A DNA stretch of 64,000 bases from [Phialemoniopsis] sp. UDSM-2020. Taxonomy: Eukaryota; Ascomycota; Sordariomycetes; Thyridiales; Thyridiaceae. A model generated the notes under the pieces. That model searched no databases and was not told the origin of the DNA. It saw nothing but the letters and a program-made list of their open reading frames with translations. Of the stretch, positions 4,537-50,563 are shown one piece after another; position 1 is the stretch's first letter; every line of letters begins with the position of its first letter. The translations under genes were made by a program, and so were the position numbers. The stretch spans positions 124,001-188,000 of the forward strand of contig JAEILZ010000004.1 in the NCBI GenBank assembly GCA_018873225.1, read 5' to 3'.

Positions 4537-4929
4537 TAGACATCGCTCTCTATTCCTCACGACGGGCGGGATCAAACAACGATAGGCCCGGGCTATGTAG
4601 CGGTCTTTAATTAGAACAGGATTCAGTGCCTGGTACGGCCCCAGCCGAACGAGCGTCATGTTTACGTGTCTAGCCGCTGAATGGATGGGCTGCTATAGCA
4701 CTGGACCGCTCTAGTTGGCACACACTGGCTAGATTGACATCATTGGTCTCCACACTCTGTCCGGACAGTTTGATGCGTCGCGTTAGATTGCAGCAGCCGT
4801 GAAGCTCACAAGTTAAATCAAACCTCTAGCATTCTCATTCAAGATAATTCTAAGCTAAGCGTTCTCGAAGACATCTCTTTGCAGACCCTGATAAAGCAAT
4901 TCTTTTGATTCTGTGCGCGTTTGTTGACC
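4537..4929. promoter_or_regulatory. Intergenic, promoter of the dehydratase gene
   Basis: A 393-base gap between two plus-strand genes. No conserved element is recognised; the sequence before the start (GTTGACC then ATG) gives an acceptable fungal initiation context. Confidence 0.4.
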
Positions 4930-5964
4930 ATGGCCGACGTCGCCACCTTGAAAGTCCCCACATCATTCGCCTCGTGCTCCATCGGCCTCCCACGGCACAC
5001 TCTACCGCAAAAGCTCGAGGCCATCGCTTCAGCAGGGTTCGAGGCCATCGAGCTGTCATTCCCCGATCTTCAGTCCTTTTCGAAGCAACATCTTGGGAGG
5101 GATGTGCCCGAGGATGACTACCCCTCCCTGTGCGAGGCGGGCAAAGAGGTCAAGAATCTCTGCGAGCAGCACAAGCTAAAAGTCCTCATGCTGCAGCCCT
5201 TTGCCAACTTTGAAGGCTGGCCTGAAGGTAGCAAAGAGCGAGAGGGTGCCTTCGCCCGGGCGCGCGGCTGGATGGACATCATGTCGGCTGTCGGCACAGA
5301 CATGCTGCAGGTCGGGGCCTCCGACTCGCCCGGCATCGCCACGTCCGTCGCAGAGCTGGCGCTCGATCTAGCCCTGCTCGCAGACCTGCTGGCTACGCGC
5401 AACTTCCGCATCGCCTACGAGAACTGGTGCTGGGCGACGCGGTCGCCGAACTGGAAGGACGTCTTCACCGTCGTGCAGATGGCGAACCGCCCAAACCTCG
5501 GGCTCTGCCTGGACACGTTCCAGTCCGCCGGCGGAGAGTGGGGAGACCCGACCACAAAGTCCGGGAGGATCGAGACTGCCAGCATCAGCGAGCAAGACCT
5601 GACTATGAGTTACCAGATTAGTCTCGACGAGCTGGTCCAGCTGGTGCCTCCGGACAAGATCTTCCTCTTGCAGATCAGCGATGCGTATCATGTGACGCCG
5701 CCCTTGTCTCCGGAACCAGACGAGACTGGATTGCGCCCCAGGGGTCGATGGAGCCACGATCATCGGCCTTTGCCATACGACGGTGGGTATCTGCCTATCA
5801 GTCCTTTCGTCAGGGCTGTCTTGGAAACGGGATTCCGGGGTTGGTTCAGCATGGAGGTCTTCGATGGCAAATTTGAAGAGAAGTATGGTAATGACTTGAA
5901 AGAATACGCAAAGAAAGCCATGGAGTCGCACAACAAACTTCTGGGTGAATCCGTGGACAAATGA
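4930..5964 (+). CDS. TIM-barrel 3-dehydroshikimate dehydratase-like enzyme
   Basis: Single exon, 344 residues, starting at the ATG at 4930. It belongs to the xylose-isomerase-like TIM-barrel superfamily (AP endonuclease 2 fold). Visible signatures are the early strand FASCSIGLPRHTLPQKLEAI, FEAIELSF, the acidic metal ligand in YENWCW, GLCLDTFQSAGG, the substrate-site segment LLQISDAY and the late strand SMEVFDG. These are the divalent-metal ligands (Glu, Asp, His/Gln, Glu) of 3-dehydroshikimate dehydratases of the qa-4/qutC type, which turn 3-dehydroshikimate into protocatechuate in quinate catabolism. Length fits that family. It could instead be a sugar-phosphate or inosose isomerase of the same fold. 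No other quinate-pathway gene is in the window, so the gene is either a stand-alone catabolic enzyme or part of the unit with the transporter and hydrolase upstream. Confidence 0.8.
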   Translation: MADVATLKVPTSFASCSIGLPRHTLPQKLEAIASAGFEAIELSFPDLQSFSKQHLGRDVPEDDYPSLCEAGKEVKNLCEQHKLKVLMLQPFANFEGWPEGSKEREGAFARARGWMDIMSAVGTDMLQVGASDSPGIATSVAELALDLALLADLLATRNFRIAYENWCWATRSPNWKDVFTVVQMANRPNLGLCLDTFQSAGGEWGDPTTKSGRIETASISEQDLTMSYQISLDELVQLVPPDKIFLLQISDAYHVTPPLSPEPDETGLRPRGRWSHDHRPLPYDGGYLPISPFVRAVLETGFRGWFSMEVFDGKFEEKYGNDLKEYAKKAMESHNKLLGESVDK

Positions 5965-7813: not shown

Positions 7814-8756
7814 TGCGTCTCGGATCAGATCCTGATGAGAGGTAAACGTGGAGCTTGTCTACGGCACACGCTTGTCGAAACCCTTGACATTCCATCCATC
7901 GTGTCAAGGGGTGTCAGTCTCCTTAAGTACACCCATCAGACGCGTCGCGGGAGGTCATTAGCAATCAATTGGATCGGCTGTTGTCACATGGACGGGATGA
8001 CGAGATTGCCGCTTGTCTGATATCACAGAACGACTTCGCAGGCGGGAGCAGGTGCAGCTGAGATGTTGACCGAGCGCATCTTGTGAAAAAGCATGCATGC
8101 CCGCGAAGAAAACTTCTTGGCGTGTGCTGATCGTCATCATTGGACATGGCCAAAGTGCTGGTGGTGGTGATGGCCAATATGCCGCCACGATGGCGACTTA
8201 TGCACTCTCTACGCTTTTTGGCAGCTTATATATCCGCTTTGGGTCGCTCGACAGCCCAGCACCTCACACCCCACGGCCAAGGCCAATCTCGGTGCTTCTA
8301 TTCATTGGGGAAACGTCATTTCGACCGGCGCACAGCTGACAGGACGAAGAGACGCACTATTGGGGATCTTCCGTTGCGGTTGCCGGTCTGGGATTGGGTT
8401 CTGCCAGGCACGGGCACTGTCGAAAGATCCGGGGTTGATGTCGTGATCGCCGTGCCCCCACGGCTGGTGCCCATCCCAACCACAAGGAGAGGCCCCAGTC
8501 CCAGTCCCACACGAGCTCAATTGGTGCCGGCATCTGTTGGGCTTAACTTCTTGTCAAATCACGTTTTCCCAGTCCCGTCGGTCCGTTCCATTCTCAATGC
8601 TTAAATGACTCGGCGGTGACGGCTGCCCTCGGCACTGGAGCCTGGCACCCCTGCCACTTGGACATGTTATCCGCTAGTCGTCACTCACGGCAAGAGATAA
8701 AAGGCCAAATTCATGAATGAAAGCTTGAATGCTTAAATGCGATCGGACTGTCTACA
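7814..8756. promoter_or_regulatory. Intergenic, bicupin promoter and methyltransferase 3' end
   Basis: The interval contains the promoter of the bicupin gene (reading leftwards) and the 3' end of the methyltransferase gene. A TATA-like stretch (TTATATAT near 8225) is present. No further gene or repeat is evident. Confidence 0.4.
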
Positions 8757-9723
8757 TTACTTCTCAACACCGACGCATCTTGTGATCTCGACTGCATCAG
8801 GGACCCCGGACGGCTCCCAACCCTCGACAAACTTGCTCTCGTAGATGAGATTGGGGTTGCCATGCACGTCTTTCTCCAGAATCTCATCGCCTTCCCGAGA
8901 CTTATACTGGTATTTGGTCCCGTCGCCAAAATGGTCTGGATCGGCGCCGGTCGCGTTCTTGAACTTTTCTCTCTTTTCTTTCACTGTAGATCTGACGTAT
9001 TCGAGATACGGAGGGTTTCCGGGCTTGACGACTGGCATGATTTCGCGTCAGTATTGGTTCGTCATGTAGTCAAGCGCATGCCACGTACCATTGTCGGCCG
9101 CATATACAGATCCAGGTCCGACGATGCTTAATTCCTCACAGAGCTTTAGGTCTGTCGTATAGGCCGGCTTCCAGTGATCCAGAAACAACAGGTCAATGTG
9201 CTGCAAGGTACCGTTGCGATGGAGACGCCTGATTGAGTCGGAACTGCCGCCAATCTCGACCTTGACGATGTCGGACAGTCCCGCGAGGTTGACAAGGCTT
9301 GCTATTACCGCGCCGAATTCGGGGTTCCTCTCAAGACTGTAGTAATGCTTGCCGCCGCCGGCTCTGAGAGCTTCGCCAAAGGCAATGGCCGAGTAGCCAA
9401 CGTAGCCGCCCAGCTCGACCATGACCCTCGGCTTCTCCTTCCGAATCAGCTCCGTGACAGTCTTGGCTTTGTACTCGCCAATGTTCATGAGGTACTTTTT
9501 CGTCCGGCCAAATTCGTCGATTGCCTCAAGAACCTTCTGCGGATTTCCGCGCATCTGCTCGAGCTCTGCATGTCCGTAGATGAAATGTAGCAACTCGATC
9601 TCGCGGCCATCATCGAACTGGATTGATACGTTAACGGCTGTCAGGGATTATTCTTCAGAGCATACCAACATAAACATCCTCCTGCGGCTGATAGGCCACG
9701 CCTTGGAAAGAATCTTCGCCCAT
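8757..9723 (-). CDS. mysB: Class I SAM-dependent O-methyltransferase of the mycosporine cluster
   Basis: Three exons: 9723-about 9670, 9617-9089 and 9031-8757, about 285 residues. The first splice donor is weak (GTTGGT) and the N-terminal 18 residues are therefore uncertain; the second intron is clear, joining AADN to VVKPGNPPYLEYVR. The SAM site is VELGGYVGYSA, followed by the acidic ribose-binding YSLERNPEF and the metal-binding LLFLDHWK and AADN, all typical of catechol O-methyltransferase-type enzymes that use Mg2+. In mycosporine biosynthesis a methyltransferase converts desmethyl-4-deoxygadusol to 4-deoxygadusol. It is transcribed divergently from the cyclase gene across 1.1 kb. The name mysB follows the cyanobacterial pathway and implies role, not proven orthology. 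On its own it could be a general catechol methyltransferase; the neighbours decide the call. Confidence 0.82.
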
Positions 9724-10845
9724 GATCGGTCTGCCTCGTGGACGTGCAGTTCTCTTAGCGAAGGAGTAAAAGCTCACAGGTTTCCGGTTGACTGTTCTTC
9801 AATGAGGTCGAAAACGATCGCGCAAGCCCAGAGTATGAATCACGCTTCGTGATGTGACTCCTCATAGCATTCTCATGTACCGAGTCAACTTTTCGTGTGG
9901 GCTGATACGATGATTCATCACTGTTACGCGATGCTGAAGTCATACACTTCGCGCCTCACCGCCAAGCTGCATCTCTCTCCTCTGCTGCGCGCCAATCGCG
10001 AAAGCACCTGACATTCGCCATTGATCTTTAGCTCGCTTTACTCCCCTCCTCGGTCTGCCGCCGTCCTGTCCGGAGGGCAGTCCGCTCGAACAGCACCGCT
10101 AGTGTCTCGCACCATCGAAGTCTACTGGGGGCTTAGAGGGCCCCTAATGTCTCGTCTGTCTCAGATCTCTCCCGCAGTGGATCTGCCTGCCCTGAATGTA
10201 GATCCGAGCTCCAGCCATAGCTTATTCACCCCATATTTGCAGCTAGATGTACATCCAGACATGTTCCTGGATCACATAGCCCATTCCGTGTAGTGGAGAT
10301 GTACTGTGAGGGGTAGCTCCTTGCAGCTTGAGCTACCCCAAGCTACCTCGCCAGCGCCTCGAGGGATTGGGCAGACTCAATGACAGCTACTTGTTGCTGT
10401 AGACTTTGAGCGAGTAATTGAGACGGCTGGGTTCTTCATGATCAGTAGAACAGGGGTCCTGTGGGACGAAAGCGGGCGTATGCAGGTCCTGACCAATTGG
10501 CATGGCACCCTCCAGCTCCGGATGTACTCTGCTCGAGACAAATTTTACTCCGGCCGGCTTGCGAGAATGGCGAATTCGAGACGGATTCCTTAGCGGCAGT
10601 AGTAGAGAGAGGAACAGGCATCGCAATTCGACGAGCGAAGAAGGCAGTACTTGTCTTTTGAGTTCCCATTTCACAATGAGAAAGTCGTGACGACATGACT
10701 TGCTCGAGACTGCTTCCGCCAGCTGTCGGTAGCTGACTTATAAGGCACGGGCTCACGATGTATGCTCCAGGTAGTGGCCTCAGACTCTGTTCAACAATCC
10801 TCCTTGCAAAACCTTGCATTTCATACTGCATTCTTCATCCCCACC
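9724..10845. promoter_or_regulatory. Divergent promoter region between O-methyltransferase and cyclase
   Basis: A 1.1 kb shared upstream region. It contains a perfect 10-base inverted repeat (10310-10319 and 10330-10339) and stress-element-like pentamers: CCCCT near 10141 and AGGGG at about 10309. No protein gene is evident inside. A joint promoter would allow balanced expression of the first two pathway steps. Confidence 0.5.
10310..10339. repeat. Perfect inverted repeat in the cyclase/methyltransferase promoter
   Basis: Arms GGGGTAGCTC and GAGCTACCCC pair perfectly around a 10-base centre. A related half (AAGCTACCTC) follows directly. It may be a dimeric factor site or a hairpin; the left arm overlaps the sequence TGAGGGG. 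Confidence 0.6.
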
Positions 10846-12404
10846 ATGTCGGACCTCAAGGCAACGGTCAGTGAGACCAAGGGCGGCTTCCACGTCGAAG
10901 GGTACGAGAAGATTGAGTACGATTTCACCTTTATCGACGGCGTCTTCAACCTCAACAACCGCCAGCTTGCCGACTGCTACACCCGCTGGGGTCGTGTCCT
11001 GGCTATTACAGACAAGAATGTCTTCTCCCTGTACGGCAAGCAGATGGAGAAGTACTTCCAGCACTACGGCCTGACTCTGAAGGTGCATCAGACCGCCATT
11101 GGAGAGAAGGCCAAGACCATTGAGACGCTCTTGAGCATCTGCGACTCCATGACCGAGTTTGGCATCATCCGGAAGGTAAACATGCTCGCAAACCGCGCAA
11201 GTTTGCCCACGCCCAGACTAATTTGCGCGCCAGGAACCTGTTCTGGTCGTCGGCGGTGGACTTGTCACTGATGTTGCAGGGTAAGTATTTCCCTTCCTAG
11301 CCACGAGAGCGCATTGATTGACACCACGATCCAGCTTTGCTTGCGCCGCCTACAGGCGCAATACCAACTTCATTCGCGTCCCGACGACCGTCATTGGTCT
11401 CATCGACGCCAGTGTCAGCATCAAGGTTGCCGTCAACTACGGCAACTACAAGAACCGCCTCGGCGCCTACCATGCGCCCATGCACACCTTTCTTGACTTT
11501 ACCTTCCTCCGGACGCTTCCCCTTGCGCAGGTCCGGAATGGCTTCGCCGAGCTGATCAAGATTTCGTCTTGCTCACACCTCGAGGTCTTCAACCTCCTTG
11601 ACAAGCACTGCGAAGACCTCATTGAGAAGAAGTTTGGTCGCGCCGATGGTTCAACCGACGAATTGCGACAGGCGGCGGATGTGGTACGTACTACGAGAGT
11701 CCGGACCAAACTTCCATCTCGTTGCTAACCCATGGTACCAGATCAATCGCGAGGGTATCTACGAGATGCTGCGACTCGAGTCGCCAAACCTGCATGAGAT
11801 CGGTCTAGACCGTGTCATCGCATACGGCCACACATGGTCGCCCATGCACGAGCTCGTCCCTAAGACACCTCTGCGCCACGGACACGCCATCTCGATTGAC
11901 ATGGCATACTCTGCGACACTAGCCAACCAGCGCGGGTTCCTGTCCGACGCTGAGCACCAGCGCCTCCTCACCCTCTTCTCGCGCGCGGGCCTGTCCATCG
12001 ACCACCCGCAGTTCGACGACGACATTCTCGACAAGGGCACGGCTGCCATTCTAAAGACCCGCGACGGCATGCTGCGTCTTGCCCTGCCCAACCCATTGGG
12101 CAAGTGCACGTTCCTGAACGACTACACTCTTCAGGAGCTCCAGTCCGCACTTCACAAGCACAAGGAGATCTGCCGAAAGTACCCTCGTGAGGGTGCAGGT
12201 CTCGAGGCCTACGTGGATGCCAGTGACACTGGCTACACGGACAACGAGACGTCCAAGACGACAGTGGAAGAGGCAGCCAAGGAGGTGGGGATCATCTCCA
12301 ACAAGCAGACAGTCAGCGAGGGTCTCAATGGTGCGACCAAGCTGTCCGAGCGGGTCAAGGTACAAGTTAACGGAGTCAACGGGATCACCAACGGCGTACA
12401 TTGA
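10846..12404 (+). CDS. mysA: Sedoheptulose-7-phosphate cyclase, desmethyl-4-deoxygadusol synthase type
   Basis: Four exons (10846-11175, 11234-11280, 11335-11683, 11742-12404) encode 462 residues with all phases consistent. It is a dehydroquinate-synthase-fold protein: NAD site GGGLVTDVAG near residue 117, the segment RVPTTVIGLIDASV at 140-153, KNRLGAYHAP at 165-174 and probable zinc ligands Glu198, His272 and His288. The RRNTNFIRVPTT and NRLG motifs place it with sedoheptulose-7-phosphate cyclases rather than with true dehydroquinate synthases. Such enzymes make desmethyl-4-deoxygadusol (mycosporines) or 2-epi-5-epi-valiolone. The adjacent O-methyltransferase and ATP-grasp ligase favour the former. 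The C-terminus carries about 60 extra low-complexity residues ending VNGVNGITNGVH. Cytosolic; sedoheptulose-7-phosphate comes from the pentose phosphate pathway. Confidence 0.93.
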
Positions 12405-13316
12405 TGTGCCTTGATCACTTTGTTCGGTACACATGGGTCTAGTATTGGCTTTCTTATTAGGGTTTTCCATAGAATTACAATAAAAAATGTTTAGGTTTCC
12501 CTAAATCTAGACTGATCTCTGGTGCACATTCCCTGTGAACAAGTAGTGGGAGAGACGAGGACCCTGAAATCTCCTGATTTCAAAGTCAAAGTAAGTACGG
12601 GCCTAGCTTGACAGGTACATGATTTCGAAAATATTGCATGTATGGTAATGTTGCTGGCATCGGGACTCGTTCAGGGCTACCCGGCTCTGGTGTAGCGGTA
12701 CCTGAAGTGGGCAAGAGAACCGTGGGAAAGCCATCTGTGAACCAGCAGTTCTTTATCACATTTACCTTTTTGCAGGACACTGGGGACGGTCTGTCGTAAA
12801 GGTTACGTAGAAATGGGGGAAGTGGACGCTCCCAAGTCGGGGCGCAAGTTGCTTTTTGAGTGGTGTCGTAATAGACTCGAGATACATTCCACTCCGATTT
12901 CGACACTAACTCTAAACTTAGGTGCTGGCCCTAAACAAGCCGCTGCAGCTAAGGAAGCGGCCTGGCCCTGGTTCTCTAGCATGCTCCACACGCGCAAAGC
13001 AGATGAATCATGTCAGGTAAGACGGAAACACGTCCGTCGTCTGTCAATGCCACAGCTCAGCGTGGCCTCCGGGTGTCGGGACCTGATCCAGAGGATGTCC
13101 TTCCAAGTTTTAGCTGCCCTCGGTTGCGCTCGATGTTCCTTGCGCGCGTTTCGAATAGAGGTACAATCATAAACCGGGGGCTGAATTTGCTTTGCTTTGC
13201 TGATCTAATATCGGTAAAGCCCTTCAATAGCAGAGGGCTGAGAACCACTCCAAGGTCTACGCCTTGCCTCTCATCGTCTCTTCTCAGCAGCTCGAATCCT
13301 CACGACCAAGGGCAAC
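12405..13316. promoter_or_regulatory. Intergenic, promoter of the ATP-grasp ligase
   Basis: Contains the 3' end of the cyclase gene (AATAAA-like ACAATAAAAAA near 12478) and the promoter of the ligase. Open frames present are short and unrecognised. Nothing else is seen. Confidence 0.45.
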
Positions 13317-14870
13317 ATGGACGCCTTGCCGGATTCGTTGGCCCACAAGACCTTCCTTCTCCTCGCGCTGGAGGTTGTGTTGTTGCCCATTGTAGCCCTT
13401 GTCTTCATTCCACTCGTTACCTTGGTAGTCCATATCCTCCCGGACAAATGGACTGTGTATCAACGGTGGCACGCCCGCAGACAGCCCGGGTTCCGCGAGT
13501 ACACCGTACTCGTCACTGGCGTGGGTATGGCCAAGGGCCTCACTCTCGCTCGTGCCTTTCATCTGTGCGGCCACCGAGTGATCGGAGCTGATTTCGTCGA
13601 GGACGGCGTTTCGTCCTCCGGCAAATTCTCACGGGCCTTGACGAAATTTTATACTCTAGGCAGCTCGAGAGGAGGAGAATTGAGCTACAGAGAGAATCTG
13701 CGTGACATCGTCCAACGAGATGGTGTCCATCTTTGGGTGTCGTGCTCTGGGGTGTCCAGCGCTCTTGAAGATGCACTCGCGATGGAGCTCATAAAGAAGG
13801 CGACAACCTGTCGGTGTATCCAGTTCGATAAGCTCGTAACCACCATGTTGCACGAGAAAGACCTATTCATGCGCCAATGCCGACGGATAGAGCTGCAGAT
13901 CCCAGAAACATTTGATGTCGAATCCAACGACCAAGCATTGTCCATCCTCAAGGATGTCGCAGCGAAGTATCCGGATCAACGCTTCATTCTCAAGACCGTC
14001 GCAGTCGACGATGCCCACAGGGGCGATATGACTCTCCTCCCCCTTGCAAGTCAGGCCCAGACAGCACACCACGTCGGCAAACTTCCGATCTCCAGAGAAA
14101 ATCCATGGATTCTCCAACAGTACATTGTCGGGAACGAGGAGTACTGCACTCACGCCCTCGTTGTGAAAGGGCAGGTCAAGGTCTTCGTCGCCTGCCCGTC
14201 GGCCGAGCTCCTGATGCACTACCGAGCACTGCCAGCTGATCATGAGGTGACACGAGCAATGTTCCGCTTCACACAAGACTTCCTCAAGCGTTCAGAGGGT
14301 GCCAAGGACTGGACCGGGCATCTTAGCTTCGACTTCATGGCCGAGAAGCAGACGGCAGATAAAGGCAAACCCATGGCCGAGCGGCTGTACGCCATCGAGT
14401 GCAATCCGCGAGCTCACACGGCCGTGGTGCTCTTCGCACAGCAAGGCCGCCAGATGCGCGACATGGTCCAGGCGTATCTGTCTACGCTCAACGGCGAGAC
14501 TTTCCCCAAAACCAACGGCTCTAGCCAGCGGTATGATCTCGAGCAAGACAAGGTGCTTCCTGCAGTGTATCCGCCCGCCGACGCATTGCCGCGGTACTGG
14601 CTGGGACACGACCTTGTGACCCTCTGTGCGCATCCTGTCTATAAGTTCTTGTTTGGTGGATTGCGAGCCGGTGCATGCCTGAGTGCACTATTTGAATTCT
14701 TGGAGCACATCTTGTTCTGGAAGGACGGCACCTTTGAATGCTGGGACCCCGCGCCGTTTCTAAATCTCTACTATACTTATTGGTTTGGGACGCTTTGGAA
14801 TGCATGGTCGAATGGCACAAACTGGTCTCGTCTCAATGTCAGCACGACCAAGATGTTCCTTAGCAAATAG
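13317..14870 (+). CDS. mysC: ATP-grasp ligase (mycosporine amino-acid ligase), probably membrane-associated
   Basis: Single exon, 517 residues. The order is: N-terminal hydrophobic stretch at about residues 13-41, a Rossmann-like pre-ATP-grasp domain starting TVLVTGVGMAKGLTLARAFH, and an ATP-grasp domain with the nucleotide-lysine strand RFILKTVAVDD, the hinge-side WILQQYIVGNEEY and the metal-site IECNPRAHTA. This is the pattern of the enzyme that phosphorylates 4-deoxygadusol and couples an amino acid (glycine in cyanobacteria) to give a mycosporine. Which amino acid this fungal version uses is not readable. The C-terminal 90 residues are rich in Phe/Trp/Leu and may dock to a membrane. It is the third gene in the cluster, same direction as the cyclase and tail-to-tail with the NRPS-like gene only 82 bases away. 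Confidence 0.9.
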   Translation: MDALPDSLAHKTFLLLALEVVLLPIVALVFIPLVTLVVHILPDKWTVYQRWHARRQPGFREYTVLVTGVGMAKGLTLARAFHLCGHRVIGADFVEDGVSSSGKFSRALTKFYTLGSSRGGELSYRENLRDIVQRDGVHLWVSCSGVSSALEDALAMELIKKATTCRCIQFDKLVTTMLHEKDLFMRQCRRIELQIPETFDVESNDQALSILKDVAAKYPDQRFILKTVAVDDAHRGDMTLLPLASQAQTAHHVGKLPISRENPWILQQYIVGNEEYCTHALVVKGQVKVFVACPSAELLMHYRALPADHEVTRAMFRFTQDFLKRSEGAKDWTGHLSFDFMAEKQTADKGKPMAERLYAIECNPRAHTAVVLFAQQGRQMRDMVQAYLSTLNGETFPKTNGSSQRYDLEQDKVLPAVYPPADALPRYWLGHDLVTLCAHPVYKFLFGGLRAGACLSALFEFLEHILFWKDGTFECWDPAPFLNLYYTYWFGTLWNAWSNGTNWSRLNVSTTKMFLSK

Positions 14871-14952
14871 TTATCTTTGTTTCTGGAGAATAATCTCAGA
14901 TATCGTCAGTTGTGGCCAGCCTAGATTGATCAGTGTTGATTCAGACTATCTT

Positions 14953-17900
14953 TTACTCTAAATTTGTCTTGATCCACTGCCACATCGTATCAATTTGTTC
15001 ACATGTCAACGGCTTCACGGTTCTCATAGTTGATGAGACCGCCGACGCTCGTTTCGCAGAAAAGGCAGTGGCTTTGTCTTCAGCATCTGCTGCCGATCTT
15101 GCCTCATGATTCATCTCGGAACGTTGTCCAAAACTACGTCGCCATAGAGGAATCAACGCTGATGCTGATCGGTGAGTGCTCCCTTTTGGGTCAGCTGCGA
15201 TTGCTTGCTCGAGTTTATCTAGCCAATCCTGAGGCGAGATGGCAGTGATAGAGGTGGAGCCACCAAGGTCTTTCTTCTCCGACTCTATAATCCATCGAAG
15301 CATGTGCCCCCATGTTACCTCCTTGTGCCAGTTTAGCACGTGGTAGACGGGTGTGGCTTCGGGCTCTGACAAGCAGACTTCCACATCTTTTCCAGTGTTT
15401 GCCAAGATCTCCAAGACCACACTTGCTGCCTGATCGACCGGAAGCCAGTCGATGGCTTCAGTGGAGAGATCTGGTAGACAATCCAATGACTTGCTTGTCG
15501 ACAGCATCAAGGGATATGCCTCACTCATATTCCAAACCCCAGATGCATTGCCGCAGAGCTGACCGACTCGGACAACACAGACTGAGCCCTGCCCTTGTTC
15601 TTTGACGTGATTTGGGCTTGGATTGCCTGACGCAGTGCTCACCTCGCTGAGAGACTTGGAAATGTGTTCAAAAGCTTTTGCACATATGCCCTCGGCAACC
15701 CACTTCGAGCGGGAGTACCCCAATGGTGAAGCGTCTTCAGGTCGCCTCGAGATCCTTTCAGGTATGTCTCCATATTCAGCATACAGCACAGCTGCTGTCG
15801 AAGAAATGAAGACGAATCGGGACCCCGTCTCCATGGCCAGGGCGGCTAGAGCCTGCGTGCCTTGGAGGTGGTCGGTGAAGGAGCGTAAGTGAATATTGAA
15901 GTTGACCGCCCACGCCGAGTGTATGATTGCGGTAGCTTCTTTCATCAGACTGTCCCAATTTGCTTGCGACAGCCCGAGCCGAACTTCAGAGAGGTTGCAT
16001 TGCAAACAGGTAACCTCGACCTGAGCATCAGCGTGCAGGTTCTGGGCACCAAGGCCAGGAAGATTCCGAGATTGAAGAGAAGCGTCAACTCGCTCGTATG
16101 CTACCTCGTCGGTCTTCGCACGGACTAGGCAGTACACCTTTGCCACATTTTTGTCTCGTCGCAAAAGGTCAAGCATGTGAGCTCCCAGGGCTCCGGTCGC
16201 TCCGGTCAGTACCACGACTTGATCTGACCTCCGACTACTTCCCTGCTTGACTTTCACATGGCCAAAGTCAGAGTACTTGGCTACAAGATCTTTCATGAGC
16301 TTGGATGCTTCGTCTGTACCATCCTCGTCCCGCATTGAAGAATTTGACTTTGACCGTAGAAACTTGAGTCGCTCGACAAGACTTCGGACATTGCAATAGT
16401 CGTACACCGCATTAGGTCCCAACTCAGCATTTGTCTCTTGCAAGAACGTGGTGTTGATTAAACTTCGAATCTGTGTGGCGGCTAGGGAGTCGATCCCCTG
16501 ATGGAAGGCGTCCTTGTCGATGTCGATGTCAATGCCGGACACTTGACGGTATATGTCTGCGACTGCTGGAAGAAGCTCTTCGTCTGTAAATGAGCACTGT
16601 ACACCAGGTACATGACCCTGATAGGCGTTCTTGATTTGTTCAGCATAGGCCTCTTCTGCCTGCCTTCTCAAAATAGTCCCCTTGCTGCTCTTCGACAGCG
16701 GCGCGCCATCGGCTTTCGGTACAATCATCATGGATTTCGGAATCTTTGCATGACTTTGTGTCCCCTTGTTGAGTTCCTCGACAGCTCCCCAAACTTTCTC
16801 AATGATGGCGTCTGGTGAAAGGGCATCTCGAGTTATTTTTGTCGGAAATAGAAGTACGCCGGGGTATTCTCTCCCGGTGCCGAAAACCAGGACGTCTTGC
16901 AACACACCACTCATAGTCAGTATTGATGCTTCAATCGGAGCAGGGTCAAACTTCTTCCCGTTGATGAGGGTGATCTGGGCGTCTGCACGGCTGTGGTACC
17001 GCCACAAGTCTGGGACAGTCGGGTGCGGCTCGAAGAGGTCTGAAGTTGCGTAGGAACCGTCTTTCCTGTTGACCTTCCCCAAGCACGGCCAAGTCGGCCT
17101 GACTACCAACTCATGAAGTGGATTATCTCGCGGCTCCAAGGCCAGGTGCTCAAACCCGTCCGTCGTTCGAAGATACTGCCATTCCGGGTCACCCGCATGG
17201 TCTCGATGGGACGACAGTAGGAAGCCGCACTCTGCGCTTCCATACCGAGAGACAAGTCTCACGCCCTCGTTGACAAGCTTGTCTCCCACTGTGGGGGGCA
17301 GAGCCGCACCGCCGACACCTACGAGGCTCATGCGGCGCAGCAACTTTAGGCCGACCGGATCGTCGGCTAGCATCTGGAGTATATACGGCACTGAAGAGAA
17401 GTATTGAACCGAACGGCCGCCAACCGCGTCAGCTACATTGATGCAGGCGCACACGTTCTTTGCGGTGATGGGAGCTTGGCCTTCAGGGAATAGCCAGATC
17501 ATTGCTCCACTCGACCAGGCCCGGAAACAGTCCGCGATGCCACCGTGGTAGAGTGGTGTGGTTGAAAAAGTCAGACACTCACTGCCGTTCGGCAGTCTTG
17601 GTAGCACTCCGACAGCGGCGTGATGACTCTGCGGGATCGGCTTGGGCAGACCTGACGATGTACCCGACGTATGGAACAGGTGTGCGGTGTCTTCGGGTTT
17701 GCAGGCGTTCCAAGTGAGTCTTTCTGGTGTTGCAGATCCAACATGTGCCAATATGCCGTCGATAGTTATTGTCTTGATCCCATCGACAGACAGGACCTTG
17801 GAATGATGAGCTTGGTCAACGAGAATTGTATTGACTTGACTCGTGGTGCATAGATGTTGTATTGCAGGTGTTTCTAGTTGTGGTCTAGAAATGGTTCAGT

Positions 17901-18369
17901 TCACCAGAAGCATTGATATCAAGCAGGTCAGAGTTTAATCCTTACGCCAGCAGAAGCACGGAAAAGCCTAACCGCAAAAGTCCGAGCCAGGCTCCGAGGA
18001 ATTCGGGAGTACTTCTACTGAGCAGTCCTACTGTTAATCCTTGCACCTTGTCATAATCACTGCCAGCAATGCTCCCCTGAAGGTGTAGTGCTACTGCTAA
18101 GGAGTAGTTTCGCAGCTCTGAAAAAGTGAATTTCACAGGATAAATCCCTATAAGAAAAGTTCAGCACGAGCTTTGCTAGGGAGTCTGGATTACTGACCGT
18201 CTCCTGTTCGCTCTATATGAGAAAAGCCAACCGCCAGGCTATCCGGTTGAGATTCTGCTTGCTCATCAATGAGGTGATTGACAGTCTTGTACGAATGTGG
18301 ATGGCGTTTGTTCCACTCGGCCGCCTGGCCCAGTGTGCAAGTGAAGTAGGTAAGCCCTATGTCTGCCAT
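14953..18369 (-). CDS. NRPS-like A-T-R enzyme (adenylate-forming reductase)
   Basis: Three exons (18369-18198, 18147-17946, 17884-14953) give 1101 residues with consistent phases. The adenylation domain has core A3 HTSGTSSGLPKP at 196-207, A5 YGSAECG near 339, an atypical A7/A8 (ATSDLF, then YHSRADAQITLINGKKFDP) and A10 SKSSKGTILRR near 522. The carrier domain has its phosphopantetheine serine in FHQGIDSLAA (Ser591). The reductase domain has the NADPH site GATGALG (686-692), the catalytic FISST (817-821) and Tyr848-x3-Lys852. Such enzymes activate a carboxylate as adenylate and thioester, then release it by reduction to an aldehyde or alcohol. No condensation domain is present. Placed between the mycosporine ligase and an aldo-keto reductase, it may reduce the amino-acid carboxyl of a mycosporine. 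Substrate is inferred; an aryl or alpha-keto acid reductase is the alternative. Confidence 0.92.
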
Positions 18370-18797
18370 GATGCCCTCGGAACGCTCCTAAGGTAAACGC
18401 ACACTGACAAAGACATTCGTGGTCGGACACGAGATTTGTGATCTCGTAAGAAAGATACCACCGACACCGGCTGCCGGCCGTGGTACGGCGCGCTCTCCGG
18501 GTCGGAGTGGAGATGACATCGATGATCCGTCGACTTTGCCGGGACGGCTCACTAGATCAGGCTAGTTACACACACCCCCGCTCCTGGAAAGCACGCATTC
18601 ACGCGTGCGCTGATGAAGTCATGAGGGGCTACTTCTGCTAGTGTCAACCTGTCAGTCAGTACTTGCGTGATTCTGATTCCAGTCTGTTCACAAGCAAACA
18701 AATCTTCACTCACCAGTTACCATCACATACTGAATTGACTCAGTCTTACACAATCTCATCCTCTCTGTAGCTCTTCGGTATTTACAAAGCATCAAAA
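18370..18797. promoter_or_regulatory. Bidirectional promoter of the NRPS-like and aldo-keto reductase genes
   Basis: The 428 bases separate two divergent starts. They contain a perfect 7-base inverted repeat (ACGAGAT, five-base centre, ATCTCGT, 18429-18447), the GC-rich palindrome CCGGCTGCCGG near 18465-18480, and TGAGGGG at 18622. The last also occurs at 10307 in the other divergent promoter of the cluster. Shared control of the two genes is inferred from layout. Confidence 0.55.
18429..18447. repeat. Inverted repeat in bidirectional promoter
   Basis: Perfect 7-base arms ACGAGAT and ATCTCGT around the centre TTGTG. It has the size of a dimeric factor site. No matching copy was found by eye elsewhere in the cluster. 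Confidence 0.5.
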
Positions 18798-19664
18798 ATG
18801 GCACCCAGCTCACTCAAAGACACCCTTCCGCTCCCCAACTCGTCGCTGAGGATCCCCCAGCTCGGCTTCGGCGTCTGGCAGTCCCCACGAGACGTCTGCG
18901 AGAAGTCCTGCACCACGGCGCTGAAGCTCGGCTACCGCCACATTGACACGGCGCAGGGCTACTCCAACGAGGCCGAGGTCGGCCGCGCGGTCGCCCACTC
19001 GGGCGTGCCCCGCTCCGACGTCTTCGTCACCACCAAGATCGCCGAGCCCGCCGGGTCCGTCGACGCCAGCTACGACAAGTGCATCGAGAGCGTGCGCAAG
19101 CTGAACCCGTCGTCGGGCGCTGCGGACAAGGACGTCTACGTCGACCTTTTCCTCGTGCACACGCCCAAGAAGGGCGCCGATGCCCGCAAGGAAAAGTGGC
19201 TGGCCCTCGAGCGCCTGCACAAGGAGGGCAAGGCCCGCGCGATCGGCGTGTCCAACTACGGCGTCAAGCACATCGAGGAGATGAAGGCGTACGCGACGAC
19301 GTGGCCGCCCGCCGTGAACCAGATCGAGCTGCACCCGTGGCACCAGCAGCGCGAGATCGTCGAGTACTGCCGCAAGAACGGCATCGTGGTCGAGGCGTAC
19401 TGCCCCATCGTGCGGAACCAAAAGGCCGAGGACGAGACGCTCGTGGGCGTGGCGGAGCGGTGTGGCAAGACGCCGAACCAGGTGCTCATTCGGTACTGCC
19501 TGCAGAAGGGCTGGGTGCCGCTGCCCAAGAGCGATAACCCGGAGAGGATCAAGCTGAATGCGGACCTGTATGACTTTGAGATATCAGAGGCCGATATGAA
19601 GAAGTTGGACGATCTGGACCAGGGAGCCAAGGGATCAATCTGCATGACGGTGGAGAACCACTAA
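18798..19664 (+). CDS. Aldo-keto reductase of the mycosporine cluster
   Basis: Single exon, 288 residues, a normal length for the family. The catalytic tetrad is complete: Asp50 and Tyr55 in HIDTAQGYSNE, Lys80 in VFVTTKIAEP and His121 in LFLVHTPK. The NADPH-binding C-terminal half shows GVSNYG, QIELHPW, YCPI and PLPKSDNPERIKLN. It is a soluble NADPH-dependent carbonyl reductase that turns aldehydes into primary alcohols. It shares a 428-base promoter with the A-T-R enzyme, which suggests that it reduces the aldehyde released by that enzyme. A general detoxification reductase is the alternative, but the divergent pairing makes a pathway role more likely. Confidence 0.88.
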   Translation: MAPSSLKDTLPLPNSSLRIPQLGFGVWQSPRDVCEKSCTTALKLGYRHIDTAQGYSNEAEVGRAVAHSGVPRSDVFVTTKIAEPAGSVDASYDKCIESVRKLNPSSGAADKDVYVDLFLVHTPKKGADARKEKWLALERLHKEGKARAIGVSNYGVKHIEEMKAYATTWPPAVNQIELHPWHQQREIVEYCRKNGIVVEAYCPIVRNQKAEDETLVGVAERCGKTPNQVLIRYCLQKGWVPLPKSDNPERIKLNADLYDFEISEADMKKLDDLDQGAKGSICMTVENH

Positions 19665-19953
19665 CTGGAATGGTCAATTCCAGTCACATCATGTTGACAG
19701 TCATGGTCAGATGAAGTATACATTTAATCGATGTTCATCAATAAAAAGCAGGCATGAATAGTAGTAGACATCATCAATTCTGAATGATTGTATCTTATGA
19801 AACAAACAAGTAACTCTCGACACGGGGATATCATTCTCCATCACTCGTTCCTCATTAACATCCTGCCCTGAAAGGCCACTGTGACTGGCTTTTCCTCCAA
19901 GCCACTTCGACGAATCCAACTATTCGACAATCAAGCGAACAGGTACCCCTTTT

Positions 19954-22270
19954 TTAACACTCCAGGTTGGGGCATCCCAGGCCAGTGCCGAGGATGTCGC
20001 CAGAGACACCAGTAAGCTGCAGGATGGCGCCGATGACACCGCCCATGCCCTCGCCGGCGATGAGGCCGGCGGCGATGGCGTAGGCGTAGATCTCCCAGCT
20101 CTTGAACTTCCACGTCTTCCAGATTTTAGAAATGATGGCGCCGATGAGCGCAGCATTCGTAAAGACCGGGTTGGGCAGGACAAAGGAGAGGGCGATGGCG
20201 CCCCAGTTGGGCAGCCACTGGCGGTACTTCTCGCGGGAGCCGACGAGGTAGTAGTGGCGGAAGATGACCTGGGCGACCGAGACGGCGCCCATGACGATGG
20301 CGAAGGCGCCGGCGGACCAGGGGATCTTGACGCTCGGGTCGGTGACGGCCTGGGCGACGGCCTTCCAGGCAGCGACCGAGGGGGCGGCGAAGGCGCAGTG
20401 CTCAGCTTCGTCATCGATGATGCAGGGGTAGGCGGACGTGAACAGCACAAACATGGCCGGGGCCAGCCAGACGGCGCAGAAGGTGCCAATAGCCTGGGCG
20501 ATCCACTGCTGGATGGGGGAGGTACCGATAAGGAAACCGGTGCGGAAGTCGGCGGTGAGGGCGGTGGCAACGTCAGCAGCGCCAGAGGCAAGACCACCGG
20601 CGATCAAGTTGATGGTCTGCGCGTGCTGCATGGGGTAGTGCGAGCCCTGAGTGACACCGCCGAACACGAGCTGGGAAGCCTTGGAGGCGGCGGTCAGAGG
20701 GGTCTGGTCGGTGACGGCGCCGATCTGGATGGCCAGGAAGGAGAAGATGAAGGCGAGGAAGATGGCCAGGATGGTCAATCCGCCGTTGACCTCCCACTGG
20801 AAGTGGAAGACAAGAATGGCAAGGACGGTGGAGGCAATCAGACCGACGATCCAGATCCAGTCCTTGACCTGCTGCTCAGGAGGAGCGGGGTCCTCGACAA
20901 TATGTTCGTTCTTAACTTCGTCTTCAGCGTGCCTGGCGAAGTACGGAGAAACCTTGTTGCGCTTGACGAGGATGTTATTGATGCCGACGCAAAGCTGATG
21001 CCAGACCGACTTGAAACCAATCCAGATCACCTTGTACTGGATGAAAAGCTCGGCCATGGAAGAGCAGACCATGATCATGACACCGGGCCAGAGCAGCCAG
21101 TAACGAGGAGAGGGCGTTTGCTTGCCGAGCTTGGAAAGACTGGCAAAGGTGTAGTAGCTGTCCCAGTGCGGGTCATCAGGGTATTGCTGGATGCCAATAC
21201 ACTCGCCGTAGTGCACCAGAAGGGGGCCGATGAGACCCCAGGCCAGGAAGGAACCGCCAAACATGGAGAGTGCCGAGTTCATACCGATCAAGATACCCGA
21301 GCCGATGAAGGCGGGGGTCAGCTCGATGTACCAGCCCCAGGACTCGATGTTCATGGCCCACGAGGTGTAGCCGGACCAGATGTGGATCCAGGTGAAGACG
21401 TGCCAGTCATACAGGATGCCGACGGCATAGTAGGAAGCGACACGGTGACAGATGGCGGCGGCAAAGGCGATACCAAGGGCTTTGAGCTTCTTCATGGCCT
21501 CGATACCACCAGCGACTCCGGCGTGCATGGAGCGGATGGTGAGCCCAGTGGCGGTGGCAGTCGGGAACATGAGCCTGAGCTCGCGGGCAACGCGGATGAC
21601 GAAGAACTTTCGGAGTGGGGTAACGAAGAACAGACCGACGAAAGAGCAGACAATGGTCAGGGTGTAGATGCGGCCAAGATCATTCTTGGGGTCGTCGCTA
21701 AGCAGGTGCAAACGATACATGGCAGGAATACCAGCGACAAAGATACCACCGATACCACCGGCACCGGTGGCAGCGGCCTGGACGATCGAGTTCTCCTGGG
21801 GTCCAAAAGGGCCACCGATAATAGGAAGGTTACCGGCGCTCTTGGAGATCATCTTGACGATACCGTAGCCGAAAATGGCACCAAACATGTTGGCGGTGAA
21901 GGTGAAGCCAGTCTTGAGACCTGAAATGGATAGCATGTCAGTATGAGCCTTACTACAGCTCATACAAGAAAATCAACTTACCGAGATACAAGTTGGAAGC
22001 GTTGACTAGACATCCGAGGACCACGCCAGTGACGACAGCACGCAGCGACAGCGCGGCGTGCTCAACAGGCAGGTTCGGGTCCATTGGAAGGGGCACGTAG
22101 AGATCGAGCTCATGGTGCTCGTCCTCCTCAACGTCGACCTTGAGGTCATCCTTGAAGTCTGCTACTGGGACGGGGTTGACGGGGTTCTCCACAGGAGGAT
22201 TGCCCTCGGCGAAGGGCTGCGCGGCAGCGCCATGGGGCACTGGCTTCTCGCCGATGATTGGCGTCGCCAT
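19954..22270 (-). CDS. OPT-family oligopeptide/metal-chelate transporter
   Basis: Two exons (22270-21982 and 21920-19954) encode 751 residues. After a cytoplasmic acidic N-terminus of about 70 residues come about 14-16 membrane segments. The first includes the family hallmark [15 protein letters not shown], followed by the glycine-rich [13 protein letters not shown], and a second half with [18 protein letters not shown]. This matches the OPT superfamily, closer to the yellow-stripe-like branch than to peptide-specific ISP4 by my reading. It would act in the plasma or vacuolar membrane with proton coupling. It follows the mycosporine cluster tail-to-tail with the reductase (289 bases), so it could mark the cluster edge; export of a mycosporine is conceivable but unsupported. 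The opposite strand has a long open frame that is only a codon-bias shadow. Confidence 0.93.
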
Positions 22271-48447: not shown

Positions 48448-49971
48448 TCAAGCTCTCCTTGATACCTTGACGGGTAGAGGCTTGGTGTGAGCACTGAAGT
48501 TCTCCTCGATACCCAGATCCCAGTCCTCCGACGGCAATGCAAAGTCATACCGCGAAAATAGCAATGCGATGATCAGCGCCATCTCGAAATAGGCGATGTT
48601 GCGCCCGATGCACGCCCGGCCGCCCTGTGAAAAGGCCAGGAATCCGCGCTGCATCGCACTGGCATCCTCTCGGAGCCAACGTTCCGGCACGTACTCCTCC
48701 GGCCTCTCGTGGAAGATCTCCGCATCTCGGTGAACAGTGTGCGTCGACACCGACACCGTGACGCCACTCGGTAGCCACTCGCCGTCGACGCGCATGCCCT
48801 CGCGCGGCGTGAGGCGCGGCAGCCCACCCTCGATCGAAGGGCGCAGGCGCATCGCCTCGTCGATGCACGCGCGTAGATATGGTAGGTCCTTGACGTCGTC
48901 GTACCGCGGCACGGGGCCGGCCGTCTTGTCGAACAACCCGGCAGCATCCAGCTCGGCACGCAGCTTGGCGGCGCAGGCCGGGTACCGCGCCAGCAGCCAA
49001 ATGGTGTTGGTCAGAGCGATCTCGGTGTTCTCGCCCGCCGCGTTGAACATGTTGGCCGACTCGGTGACGAGCTCGCCGAGCTCGAGGGCGAGGGCGTCGC
49101 CTTGCCTGTCGTATAGCATCGTCGTCATCAGGTCGTCGAGGGGCCCCTGCCCTGCCCGTAGACGCTGCGTATCCATACGTAGACGGTTGCGCACAAAGTG
49201 CAGCGTGACGTCGCGCAGGCCCTGACCAGTGCTCCAACCGGGATGCCACTGCGTGAGATACTTGATCAGTCGCAGGGACCGTGGCGCCCAGGCGCCCGCT
49301 GTGCCGACACGGCCCGAGTCGATCATGCTCTGGTACATGTCTGCCTCGTACAGGCGGCCGTCGGGGGTCTCGGCGCCAGTGACGGTGGACTCGCGCTCGA
49401 GGAAGTTGGGGTCCTGCGCGTAGAGGAGGACACTAGCAATCTCGTAGGTCGTGTGAAGCATCATGCGCTTCATGTCGACCACGCATCCCTCCTTGGCGTC
49501 CAAGACCTTGACGAGGCGTCTCAAGTGCGTGCCAGCGAGCTCTTCCAGCTGGACAACATTCTTTTGTGCCAGTGCAGCGGCGAATCGGCGTCGCTTAACG
49601 CTGTGCACGGCCTTCTCTTGTGCGTCCGAGATGTTGGCGTGTGTCGAGACCAGCGTGCCGTAGAAGTGGTCCTTGATCGTTGGTGTGCCGTGTCCGTATA
49701 TGTCTTTTATTGCCTGCAGTGATGCGAACGAGACATGGCTTGGTCCTACTCGAACAATCGGGCCGTATTTTTTGTGCGCTGCGTGAACGGCGATGGTTCG
49801 AGTGTGGAAGTACTGGTGGAGGACGCCCCAGGCATTCGTTAACGCCGCGCAAGACACGCTCGGAAATCGGCGTAGTTTCTGACCATCTACCACGTACAGG
49901 TAAAGAGGGTAGATGAAGGCATAGAGGGTGAGCAGGCAAAGAGCAGCCTGAGCGATCAAAATCCCGTACAT
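48448..49971 (-). CDS. Cytochrome P450 monooxygenase
   Basis: Single exon, 507 residues, a full-length microsomal class II P450. The N-terminus has a membrane anchor (ILIAQAALCLLTLYAFIYPLYLYVV). The I-helix oxygen-binding motif is AGENTEIA, the K-helix ExxR is EAMRLRPS, the PERW motif is VPERWLRE, and the haem loop is FSQGGRACIGRN with its cysteine about 55 residues from the end. The general pattern recalls the benzoate-4-monooxygenase-like (CYP53-related) fungal P450s, but I cannot assign a family by eye. A separate NADPH-P450 reductase gene lies 5 kb away. Together with transporters and a Zn2Cys6 factor this suggests inducible oxidation of an imported compound; a biosynthetic role is not excluded. 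Confidence 0.93.
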   Translation of the reverse strand: MYGILIAQAALCLLTLYAFIYPLYLYVVDGQKLRRFPSVSCAALTNAWGVLHQYFHTRTIAVHAAHKKYGPIVRVGPSHVSFASLQAIKDIYGHGTPTIKDHFYGTLVSTHANISDAQEKAVHSVKRRRFAAALAQKNVVQLEELAGTHLRRLVKVLDAKEGCVVDMKRMMLHTTYEIASVLLYAQDPNFLERESTVTGAETPDGRLYEADMYQSMIDSGRVGTAGAWAPRSLRLIKYLTQWHPGWSTGQGLRDVTLHFVRNRLRMDTQRLRAGQGPLDDLMTTMLYDRQGDALALELGELVTESANMFNAAGENTEIALTNTIWLLARYPACAAKLRAELDAAGLFDKTAGPVPRYDDVKDLPYLRACIDEAMRLRPSIEGGLPRLTPREGMRVDGEWLPSGVTVSVSTHTVHRDAEIFHERPEEYVPERWLREDASAMQRGFLAFSQGGRACIGRNIAYFEMALIIALLFSRYDFALPSEDWDLGIEENFSAHTKPLPVKVSRRA

Positions 49972-50563
49972 AGGTGAATATCGTGCTGAGATGAGACAGA
50001 CGTGGATTTGACGGAGATGCTAAGAGCTTCTCGCGCTGAGAATGAATGAAGGAAAGATGGCCAATATCAATGCAATTATGATTGTCCACGGGAAAAGTAA
50101 GAGACTTGGTTTACATGTATGGTGGTCGTCAGTCGAGCAAGAGAACGTAGGTCTTTATCGCCAACTCTCTAACGCCTGCTTGACTCCGCTGAAGAGCCCG
50201 TGATGGAAATGGCTAGCACTTTGGCAATCCCGTTTCGATTTTCAGATCTCGTCCAAACACCTCTTGCATGCCTGATACGTCCAGCATGCTCCAAGGCCCG
50301 GAAATAACTGGAGCATGAACCTATCTCGGTCGACAATCTCCACCTTGGGCCATCTGGAGAACATCACTAGCGTTGGCGATCGGCAAGCCCGGTTCATTAT
50401 TACCGAAAGAGGCTTTTTCAGACCGCGAGCTTTTTTAGTCCGTCATCGAACCGATCTCTCTGCAACGACGCCACGACTCGATCTCGAGCCATACGATATT
50501 TACCTCTTCTTTGGACCAGTCCCCTTTGTTCCGATTCGAATGAGGATTCCATCTTAGGAAAAA
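49972..50563. promoter_or_regulatory. Divergent promoter of P450 and regulator genes
   Basis: 592 bases between head-to-head genes. Several CGG/CCG triplets occur (for example near 50330 and 50382) but none forms the CGG-N4-CGG pattern found at 48.0-48.2 kb. No gene is seen. Confidence 0.45.

What the first reader, a model, noticed from the sequence alone, without database searches (positions are those of the whole stretch)
8757..19664. Fungal mycosporine cluster extended by an A-T-R reductase and an aldo-keto reductase
Seen: cyclase, O-methyltransferase and ATP-grasp genes adjacent to an NRPS-like A-T-R gene that is divergent from a complete aldo-keto reductase. Known: the first three families convert sedoheptulose-7-phosphate to 4-deoxygadusol and then a mycosporine amino acid; A-T-R enzymes reduce carboxylates via a thioester; fungi make mycosporines with amino-alcohol side groups (serinol, glutaminol) whose reduction step I do not know to be assigned to a gene. 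Inference: the A-T-R enzyme loads the carboxyl of a mycosporine amino acid, or of the free amino acid, and releases an aldehyde that the reductase turns into the alcohol. Cyanobacterial clusters use NRPS-like or Ala-Ala-ligase-like enzymes for a second amino-acid attachment instead.
Basis: partly seen in the sequence, partly recalled or inferred. Interest (0 to 1): 0.93.

Follow-up and report, generated by a model that had tools for sequence, protein, structure and literature searches.

The report
Fungal sunscreen cluster with reducing enzymes
A fungus carries the three standard genes for a natural sunscreen next to two enzymes that could turn the sunscreen's acid end into an alcohol, a step found in fungal sunscreens whose gene I could not find assigned in the papers I searched.

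Summary
Observation confirmed. The window, from a 44.2-Mb, 11-contig genome, holds O-methyltransferase, DDGS-type cyclase, MysC-like ATP-grasp ligase, a complete 1,101-aa A-T-R carboxylate reductase and a complete aldo-keto reductase (AKR) at 8757-19664. The core is a sound mycosporine core. The A-T-R link is not chance: of 23 named fungi in both top-120 lists, 22 have A-T-R and ATP-grasp on a contig of equal length; 4 of 4 comparable tag pairs lie within two genes. A-T-R and AKR form a second conserved pair (7 of 7 comparable tags adjacent, all Fusarium or Neonectria).

Interpretation partly supported: late reduction of a mycosporine carboxyl to an amino alcohol fits best, but no substrate is shown. 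Against it: yeast with only the three Phaffia core genes is reported to make mycosporine-glutaminol; at least 60 of 120 A-T-R rows are Hypocreales but none of the 66 named ATP-grasp rows, with a near-identical A domain; the AKR is unlinked in three Hypoxylon and unseen for Thyridium. NRPS-like genes in fungal mycosporine-like clusters were in print in 2021.

The parts
8757..9723 (-). O-methyltransferase (MysB-like role): exons 9723-9666, 9637-9089 (with the alternative intron: 9723-9676, 9617-9089), 9031-8757; about 293 aa; single copy in the genome
   Evidence: Pfam Methyltransf_3 4.5e-10; models; all three genome matches are exons of this gene; match in 61 of 66 bacterial DDGS loci
10846..12404 (+). 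2-desmethyl-4-deoxygadusol synthase (DDGS-type sugar phosphate cyclase), exons 10846-11175, 11234-11280, 11335-11683, 11742-12404; 462 aa
   Evidence: best PDB chain 5tpr 507 bits against 246 for 4p53; 56% identity to 5tpr; only other DHQ_synthase match in the genome lies in a 1,695-aa open frame
13317..14870 (+). ATP-grasp ligase (MysC-like), single exon, 517 aa, long N-terminal helix (8-40) of hydrophobic make-up; single copy
   Evidence: tblastn match in 66 of 66 bacterial DDGS loci, up to 30% identity; ATP-grasp fold; one match in the genome
14953..18369 (-). A-T-R NRPS-like carboxylate reductase, exons 18369-18198, 18147-17946, 17884-14953; 1,101 aa
18798..19664 (+). aldo-keto reductase, 288 aa, divergent from A-T-R
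   Evidence: Pfam Aldo_ket_red 8.3e-45; tetrad D50 Y55 K80 H121; A-T-R-linked relatives

Best explanation
A mycosporine cluster with a reductive tailoring pair. DDGS and OMT make 4-deoxygadusol from sedoheptulose 7-phosphate, and the ATP-grasp enzyme joins it to an amino acid (well-supported family inference). The A-T-R enzyme then adenylates the free carboxyl of that mycosporine amino acid, holds it as a carrier thioester and releases an aldehyde with NAD(P)H; the divergent AKR reduces the aldehyde to the amino-alcohol side chain (serinol or glutaminol type). Shown: gene identities, completeness, conserved linkage. Inferred: substrate, order of steps, identity of the product.
For: Core identity. 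A-T-R and ATP-grasp on a contig of the same length in 22 of 23 named organisms found in both top-120 lists, plus one unnamed 49-kb contig; about 1.4 such cases are expected for those 22 contigs if genes were placed at random in 40-Mb genomes (size assumed, relatives not independent). 4 of 4 comparable tag pairs differ by 1 or 2. In Whalleya microplaca one gene model fuses an ATP-grasp stretch (51% over 304 aa) to the A-T-R. A domain lacks the Asp for a free alpha-amino group (weak). Fungal mycosporines occur as acid and alcohol forms, e.g. mycosporine-glutamine and -glutaminol, -serine and -serinol (table in PMC10384724, passages); a 1983 title reports reduced mycosporine-glutamines in several fungi (title only, in a reference list).
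Against: Phaffia DDGS+OMT+ATP-grasp alone are reported to give mycosporine-glutaminol in S. cerevisiae, by HPLC co-migration (in the passages found for 'mass' the word means protein mass). Hypocreales: at least 60 of 120 A-T-R rows, but none of the 66 named among 120 ATP-grasp rows, although five named lichen-forming fungi are there; two Fusarium gene models run from A-T-R into a Pyr_redox_2 protein, one of them through a Zn2Cys6 domain, so the pair may work without a mycosporine there. Only 2 A-domain columns separate core-linked from Hypocreales rows, which suggests one shared substrate. AKR is on another contig than A-T-R in 3 named Hypoxylon, and on another contig than ATP-grasp in 4 of 6 named organisms. 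No Thyridium in the AKR listing (by eye), though Thyridium is the nearest named relative. Diaporthe australafricana rows for A-T-R and ATP-grasp are on different contigs, perhaps of different assemblies.
Confidence: 0.45

Rival explanations
1. A-T-R reduces the free amino acid (for example glutamine or serine) first; the AKR makes the amino alcohol, and the ATP-grasp enzyme couples the amino alcohol to 4-deoxygadusol.
For: The Phaffia authors state that their ATP-grasp enzyme incorporates glutaminol. The same linkage data apply. An invariant Asp (D243) lies four residues after the expected place and might serve instead.
Against: The A domain has Gly239 (6o6e alignment) or Phe244 (7wew alignment) where those amino-acid A domains have Asp (both weak); bacterial relatives of the ligase use amino acids (recalled).
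Confidence: 0.13
2. The A-T-R/AKR pair is an older, separate module that reduces an acid unrelated to mycosporines, as it may do in Fusarium (NRPS11), and lies beside the mycosporine core through cluster merging.
For: Hypocreales have the pair but are absent among the 66 named ATP-grasp rows of the top 120; Fusarium neighbours include a Zn2Cys6 domain and a Pyr_redox_2 protein; pocket motif H-G-G-x-x-D-x-x-R-x-W is invariant in the 53-row alignment and nearly the same in all groups; FgNRPS11 (FGSG_03245) has no product in the table read.
Against: Core linkage in 22 of 23 named fungi, spread over several branches of the A-T-R tree; chance merging would have to be kept in all of them.
Confidence: 0.27
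3. A-T-R acts on a mycosporine but stops at the aldehyde, which cyclises or reacts on; the AKR is an ordinary reductase that happens to be next to it.
For: Three named Hypoxylon have the AKR relative on another contig and Thyridium is not in the AKR listing; AKR relatives at 57-67% identity fill most of that listing, many from fungi with no A-T-R row in the top 120; the genome has a second AKR of 57-59% identity.
Against: AKR next to A-T-R in 7 of 7 comparable tag pairs; all 18 A-T-R- or core-linked AKR rows and the query fall in one 56-row part of the tree (local support 87, midpoint root for drawing only).
Confidence: 0.15

Closest known systems
Phaffia rhodozyma DDGS-OMT-ATPG mycosporine cluster (PMC10057719)
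   Same: Three core families in a fungus, tested by deletion and yeast expression
   Different: The cluster is described as three genes, with no A-T-R and no AKR; amino alcohol reported without them
NRPS-like mycosporine-like clusters of Hypoxylaceae (PMC8403587, passages)
   Same: NRPS-like gene in a mycosporine-like gene cluster; A-T-R relatives of Hypoxylon and kin are in the tree with the window's gene, apart from the host's other A-T-R genes
   Different: The passages assign no reducing role and no product; AKR on another contig in 3 named Hypoxylon
Fusarium NRPS11 (FGSG_03245)
   Same: Fusarium rows, one named nrps11 (P0024), lie in the same A-T-R tree; AKR neighbour in several Fusarium
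   Different: No Hypocreales among the 66 named ATP-grasp rows of the top 120; neighbours include Zn2Cys6 and Pyr_redox_2 domains; no product in the passages read
Cyanobacterial MAA cluster with MysE NRPS-like enzyme
   Same: DDGS, OMT and ATP-grasp genes side by side (L038)
   Different: The MysE-type enzyme attaches a second amino acid and ends in a thioesterase (recalled); here a reductase ends the protein
Neurospora crassa carboxylate reductase (8aep)
   Different: A distant relative; its genomic setting was not looked at

Membership tests
Mycosporine/MAA core cluster (DDGS, OMT, ATP-grasp) | Cyclase closer to DDGS than to valiolone or dehydroquinate synthases | tested here: met
   5tpr 507 bits, 4p53 246, the rest 127 or less; 56% identity to 5tpr. 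That 5tpr is the Anabaena DDGS and 4p53 a valiolone synthase is recalled; the depositors call them 3-dehydroquinate synthase and cyclase
Mycosporine/MAA core cluster (DDGS, OMT, ATP-grasp) | Adjacent O-methyltransferase and MysC-like ATP-grasp ligase | tested here: met
   (ATP-grasp match in 66 of 66 and OMT match in 61 of 66 bacterial DDGS loci)
Mycosporine/MAA core cluster (DDGS, OMT, ATP-grasp) | Product absorbing near 310 nm | not testable with these tools
   No metabolite data
A-T-R adenylate-forming (carboxylate) reductase | A, T and R domains in one chain with key residues | tested here: met
   K526, S591, Y848, K852; fold of the Thyridium orthologue
A-T-R adenylate-forming (carboxylate) reductase | Reduces a carboxylic acid via a thioester | not testable with these tools
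   No assay
Lys2 aminoadipate reductase | Scores above the curated cut-off of TIGR03443 | tested here: not met
   80.6 bits against 1030.1
MysE-type NRPS-like (A-T-TE) | C-terminal thioesterase | tested here: not met
   C-terminus is NAD_binding_4; no thioesterase family among the five listed
Aldo-keto reductase | AKR family match and Asp-Tyr-Lys-His tetrad | tested here: met
A-T-R group that holds Fusarium NRPS11 | One group apart from the host's other A-T-R genes | tested here: met
   (FastTree, 121 rows against 5 host A-T-R pieces; those pieces are 27-32% identical)

The most novel reading that the evidence does not exclude
The A-T-R enzyme with its divergent AKR is the unassigned carboxyl-reducing system of fungal mycosporines: a two-enzyme, carrier-bound reduction that works on a finished mycosporine amino acid and explains serinol and glutaminol side chains in Sordariomycetes.
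Probability: 0.42. Interest if true: 0.75.

Novelty: new variant of a known kind. Interest (0 to 1): 0.6.

Why it matters
Fungal mycosporines are known as acids and as amino alcohols, and I found no paper, in ten searches of the held library, that names a gene for the reduction. A complete five-gene locus, and a list of fungi with linked pairs, makes this directly testable by co-expression and one mass shift (COOH to CH2OH, minus 13.979 Da). It would also add carboxylate reduction to the tailoring steps of this sunscreen family, and would suggest a substrate class for the uncharacterised Fusarium NRPS11 group.

Tried and rejected
MysE-type attachment of a second amino acid by the A-T-R: rejected, the protein ends in a reductase domain. 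Lys2: rejected. Chance neighbourhood: rejected for A-T-R/ATP-grasp. Bacterial MAA clusters as source of the pair: AKR hit in 0 of 66 loci, A-T-R-like hit in 3 of 66, all Rhodococcoides and only 24-26% identical. Specificity positions between core-linked and Hypocreales A domains: only 2 columns met my thresholds, so little sign of a different pocket. Sigma-70-type promoter scan between A-T-R and AKR: not meaningful in a fungus. PDB sequence search with the ATP-grasp protein: no match. First bacterial scan with the DDGS sequence alone: nothing; repeated with a two-row alignment. A domain by fold: acyl or aryl ligases and amino-acid A domains score alike, so it does not settle the substrate class. 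Whether Fusarium has DDGS or ATP-grasp genes could not be decided: protein listings stop at 120 rows and no fungal genome but the host's could be searched here.

Limits of the co-occurrence test: contig identity is read from equal contig length in the listings. Stachybotrys chartarum, counted as on different contigs for A-T-R and AKR, comes from two strains and says nothing; I do not use it. The lists are the best 120 of 874 (A-T-R), of 1,392 (ATP-grasp) and of 7,993 (AKR). Genus-to-order assignments are recalled.

Full report
What is there. The window lies in a 44.2-Mb, 11-contig genome, at contig 6, 124001-188000. Five complete genes lie at 8757-19664 in the order OMT (-), DDGS (+), ATP-grasp (+), A-T-R (-), AKR (+). 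Pfam identifies four of them. The exon structures follow GT-AG introns of 50-61 bp, except for the first OMT intron, which is 28 bp, or 58 bp with a shorter N-terminus.

The core. The cyclase is 56% identical to chain 5tpr and scores 507 bits to it, 246 to 4p53 and 127 or less to the other chains listed. I recall that 5tpr is the Anabaena DDGS and 4p53 a valiolone synthase; the depositors' names do not say so. A scan of bacterial and archaeal genomes with the two-row alignment found 66 loci with a DDGS relative. Of these 66 fetched stretches, 66 hold a match to the window's ATP-grasp protein, 61 an OMT match, none an AKR match, and 3 an A-T-R-like match of 24-26% identity. The window's ATP-grasp protein has no Pfam or PDB sequence match, but its model (mean pLDDT 83) matches ATP-grasp enzymes. 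ATP-grasp and OMT genes are single copy in the genome, and the only other cyclase-family match sits in a 1,695-aa open frame on another contig, probably the AROM protein.

Linkage. I compared the best 120 rows for A-T-R, ATP-grasp and AKR by organism, contig length and locus tag. For those 22 contigs random placement in 40-Mb genomes would give about 1.4, although the species are related. All 4 comparable tag pairs differ by 1 or 2 (Thyridium curvatum, Pestalotiopsis fici, Pyricularia pennisetigena, Apiospora marii). A Whalleya microplaca model fuses an ATP-grasp stretch to the A-T-R. 7 of 7 comparable tag pairs are adjacent, all in Fusarium or Neonectria. Thyridium does not appear in the AKR listing (by eye).

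What speaks against a mycosporine substrate. Two Fusarium gene models run from A-T-R into a Pyr_redox_2 protein, one of them through a Zn2Cys6 domain, so in them the core is not next to A-T-R on that side. The A-domain motif H-G-G-x-x-D-x-x-R-x-W is invariant in a 53-row alignment and in all core-linked (24) and Diaporthales (6) rows and the 54 of 60 Hypocreales rows printed; only 2 columns of the A domain separate core-linked from Hypocreales rows at my thresholds. Either Hypocreales keep the core elsewhere or in diverged form, or the family has another substrate; the tools here cannot decide. In Phaffia, three genes suffice for a product called mycosporine-glutaminol in S. cerevisiae, by co-migration (PMC10057719, section 7 read); in the passages found for 'mass' in that text the word means protein mass.

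Which acid. In the alignment to the prolyl A domain 6o6e, the Asp of its FD motif falls on Gly239 of the window's protein; in that to the lysine-polymer synthetase 7wew it falls on Phe244 (both weak). The role of that Asp in holding the alpha-amino group is recalled. An invariant Asp (D243) lies close by and could take its place. A mycosporine amino acid has no free amino group, so the lack of the usual Asp fits reduction after coupling better than reduction of a free amino acid, but it fits any aryl or alkyl acid too. By fold, acyl, aryl and amino-acid activating enzymes score alike.

Literature. Ten searches of the held open library showed no assignment of a reductase gene to fungal mycosporine amino alcohols. 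The library lacks most subscription papers; Balskus and Walsh 2010 is not held. The association itself is in print: PMC8403587 (passages) reports NRPS-like mycosporine-like clusters in most Hypoxylaceae, product unidentified. PMC4974774 (passages) found no such cluster in the Colletotrichum genomes it studied. PMC3360786 (passages) speculates on a mycosporine-like NRPS product as a sporulation signal in Fusarium fujikuroi. FgNRPS11 is FGSG_03245, with no product in the table of PMC3814326 (passage). PMC10384724 (passages) lists acid and alcohol mycosporines of fungi.

Verdict. The reading that A-T-R and AKR reduce a mycosporine carboxyl is the best available at about 0.45; it is a testable gene assignment for a known chemical step, in a variant of a known cluster type.

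Noticed in passing
L078, L079, L080 (Rhodococcoides MAA loci), roughly 1.6-5.1 kb, DDGS at 8001: A 1,170-1,178-aa open frame with a weak match to the A-T-R (24-26%) lies about 3 kb upstream of DDGS on the same strand in 3 of 66 bacterial DDGS loci; its length suggests a carboxylic acid reductase. It may be chance or an independent pairing of carboxylate reduction with an MAA cluster.
   Followed up: partly
window 4909-5964: Xylose isomerase-like TIM barrel gene whose only PDB sequence match is 5hmq (named 4-hydroxyphenylpyruvate dioxygenase); possibly a 3-dehydroshikimate dehydratase (recalled), a few kb from a dehydroquinate-synthase-like cyclase.
   Followed up: partly
window 19885-21972: The OPT transporter gene (- strand, 672-aa open frame) has a 679-aa frame open on the opposite strand over almost its whole length.
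   Followed up: no
window 9618-9675: First OMT intron: a 28-bp GT-AG intron gives the longer N-terminus but is unusually short; a 58-bp alternative shortens the protein.
   Followed up: partly
window 48448-50019 and 55651-57561: Open frames that look like a cytochrome P450 and a P450-reductase-like flavoprotein (judged by eye from the frames, no family search).
   Followed up: no
P0066, P0076, P0078, P0103 (Fusarium A-T-R gene models): P0066 and P0076 run on into a Pyr_redox_2 protein, P0066 through a Zn2Cys6 domain; P0078 and P0103 end in tails that by eye resemble that of P0066. This hints at the makeup of the uncharacterised NRPS11 locus.
   Followed up: partly
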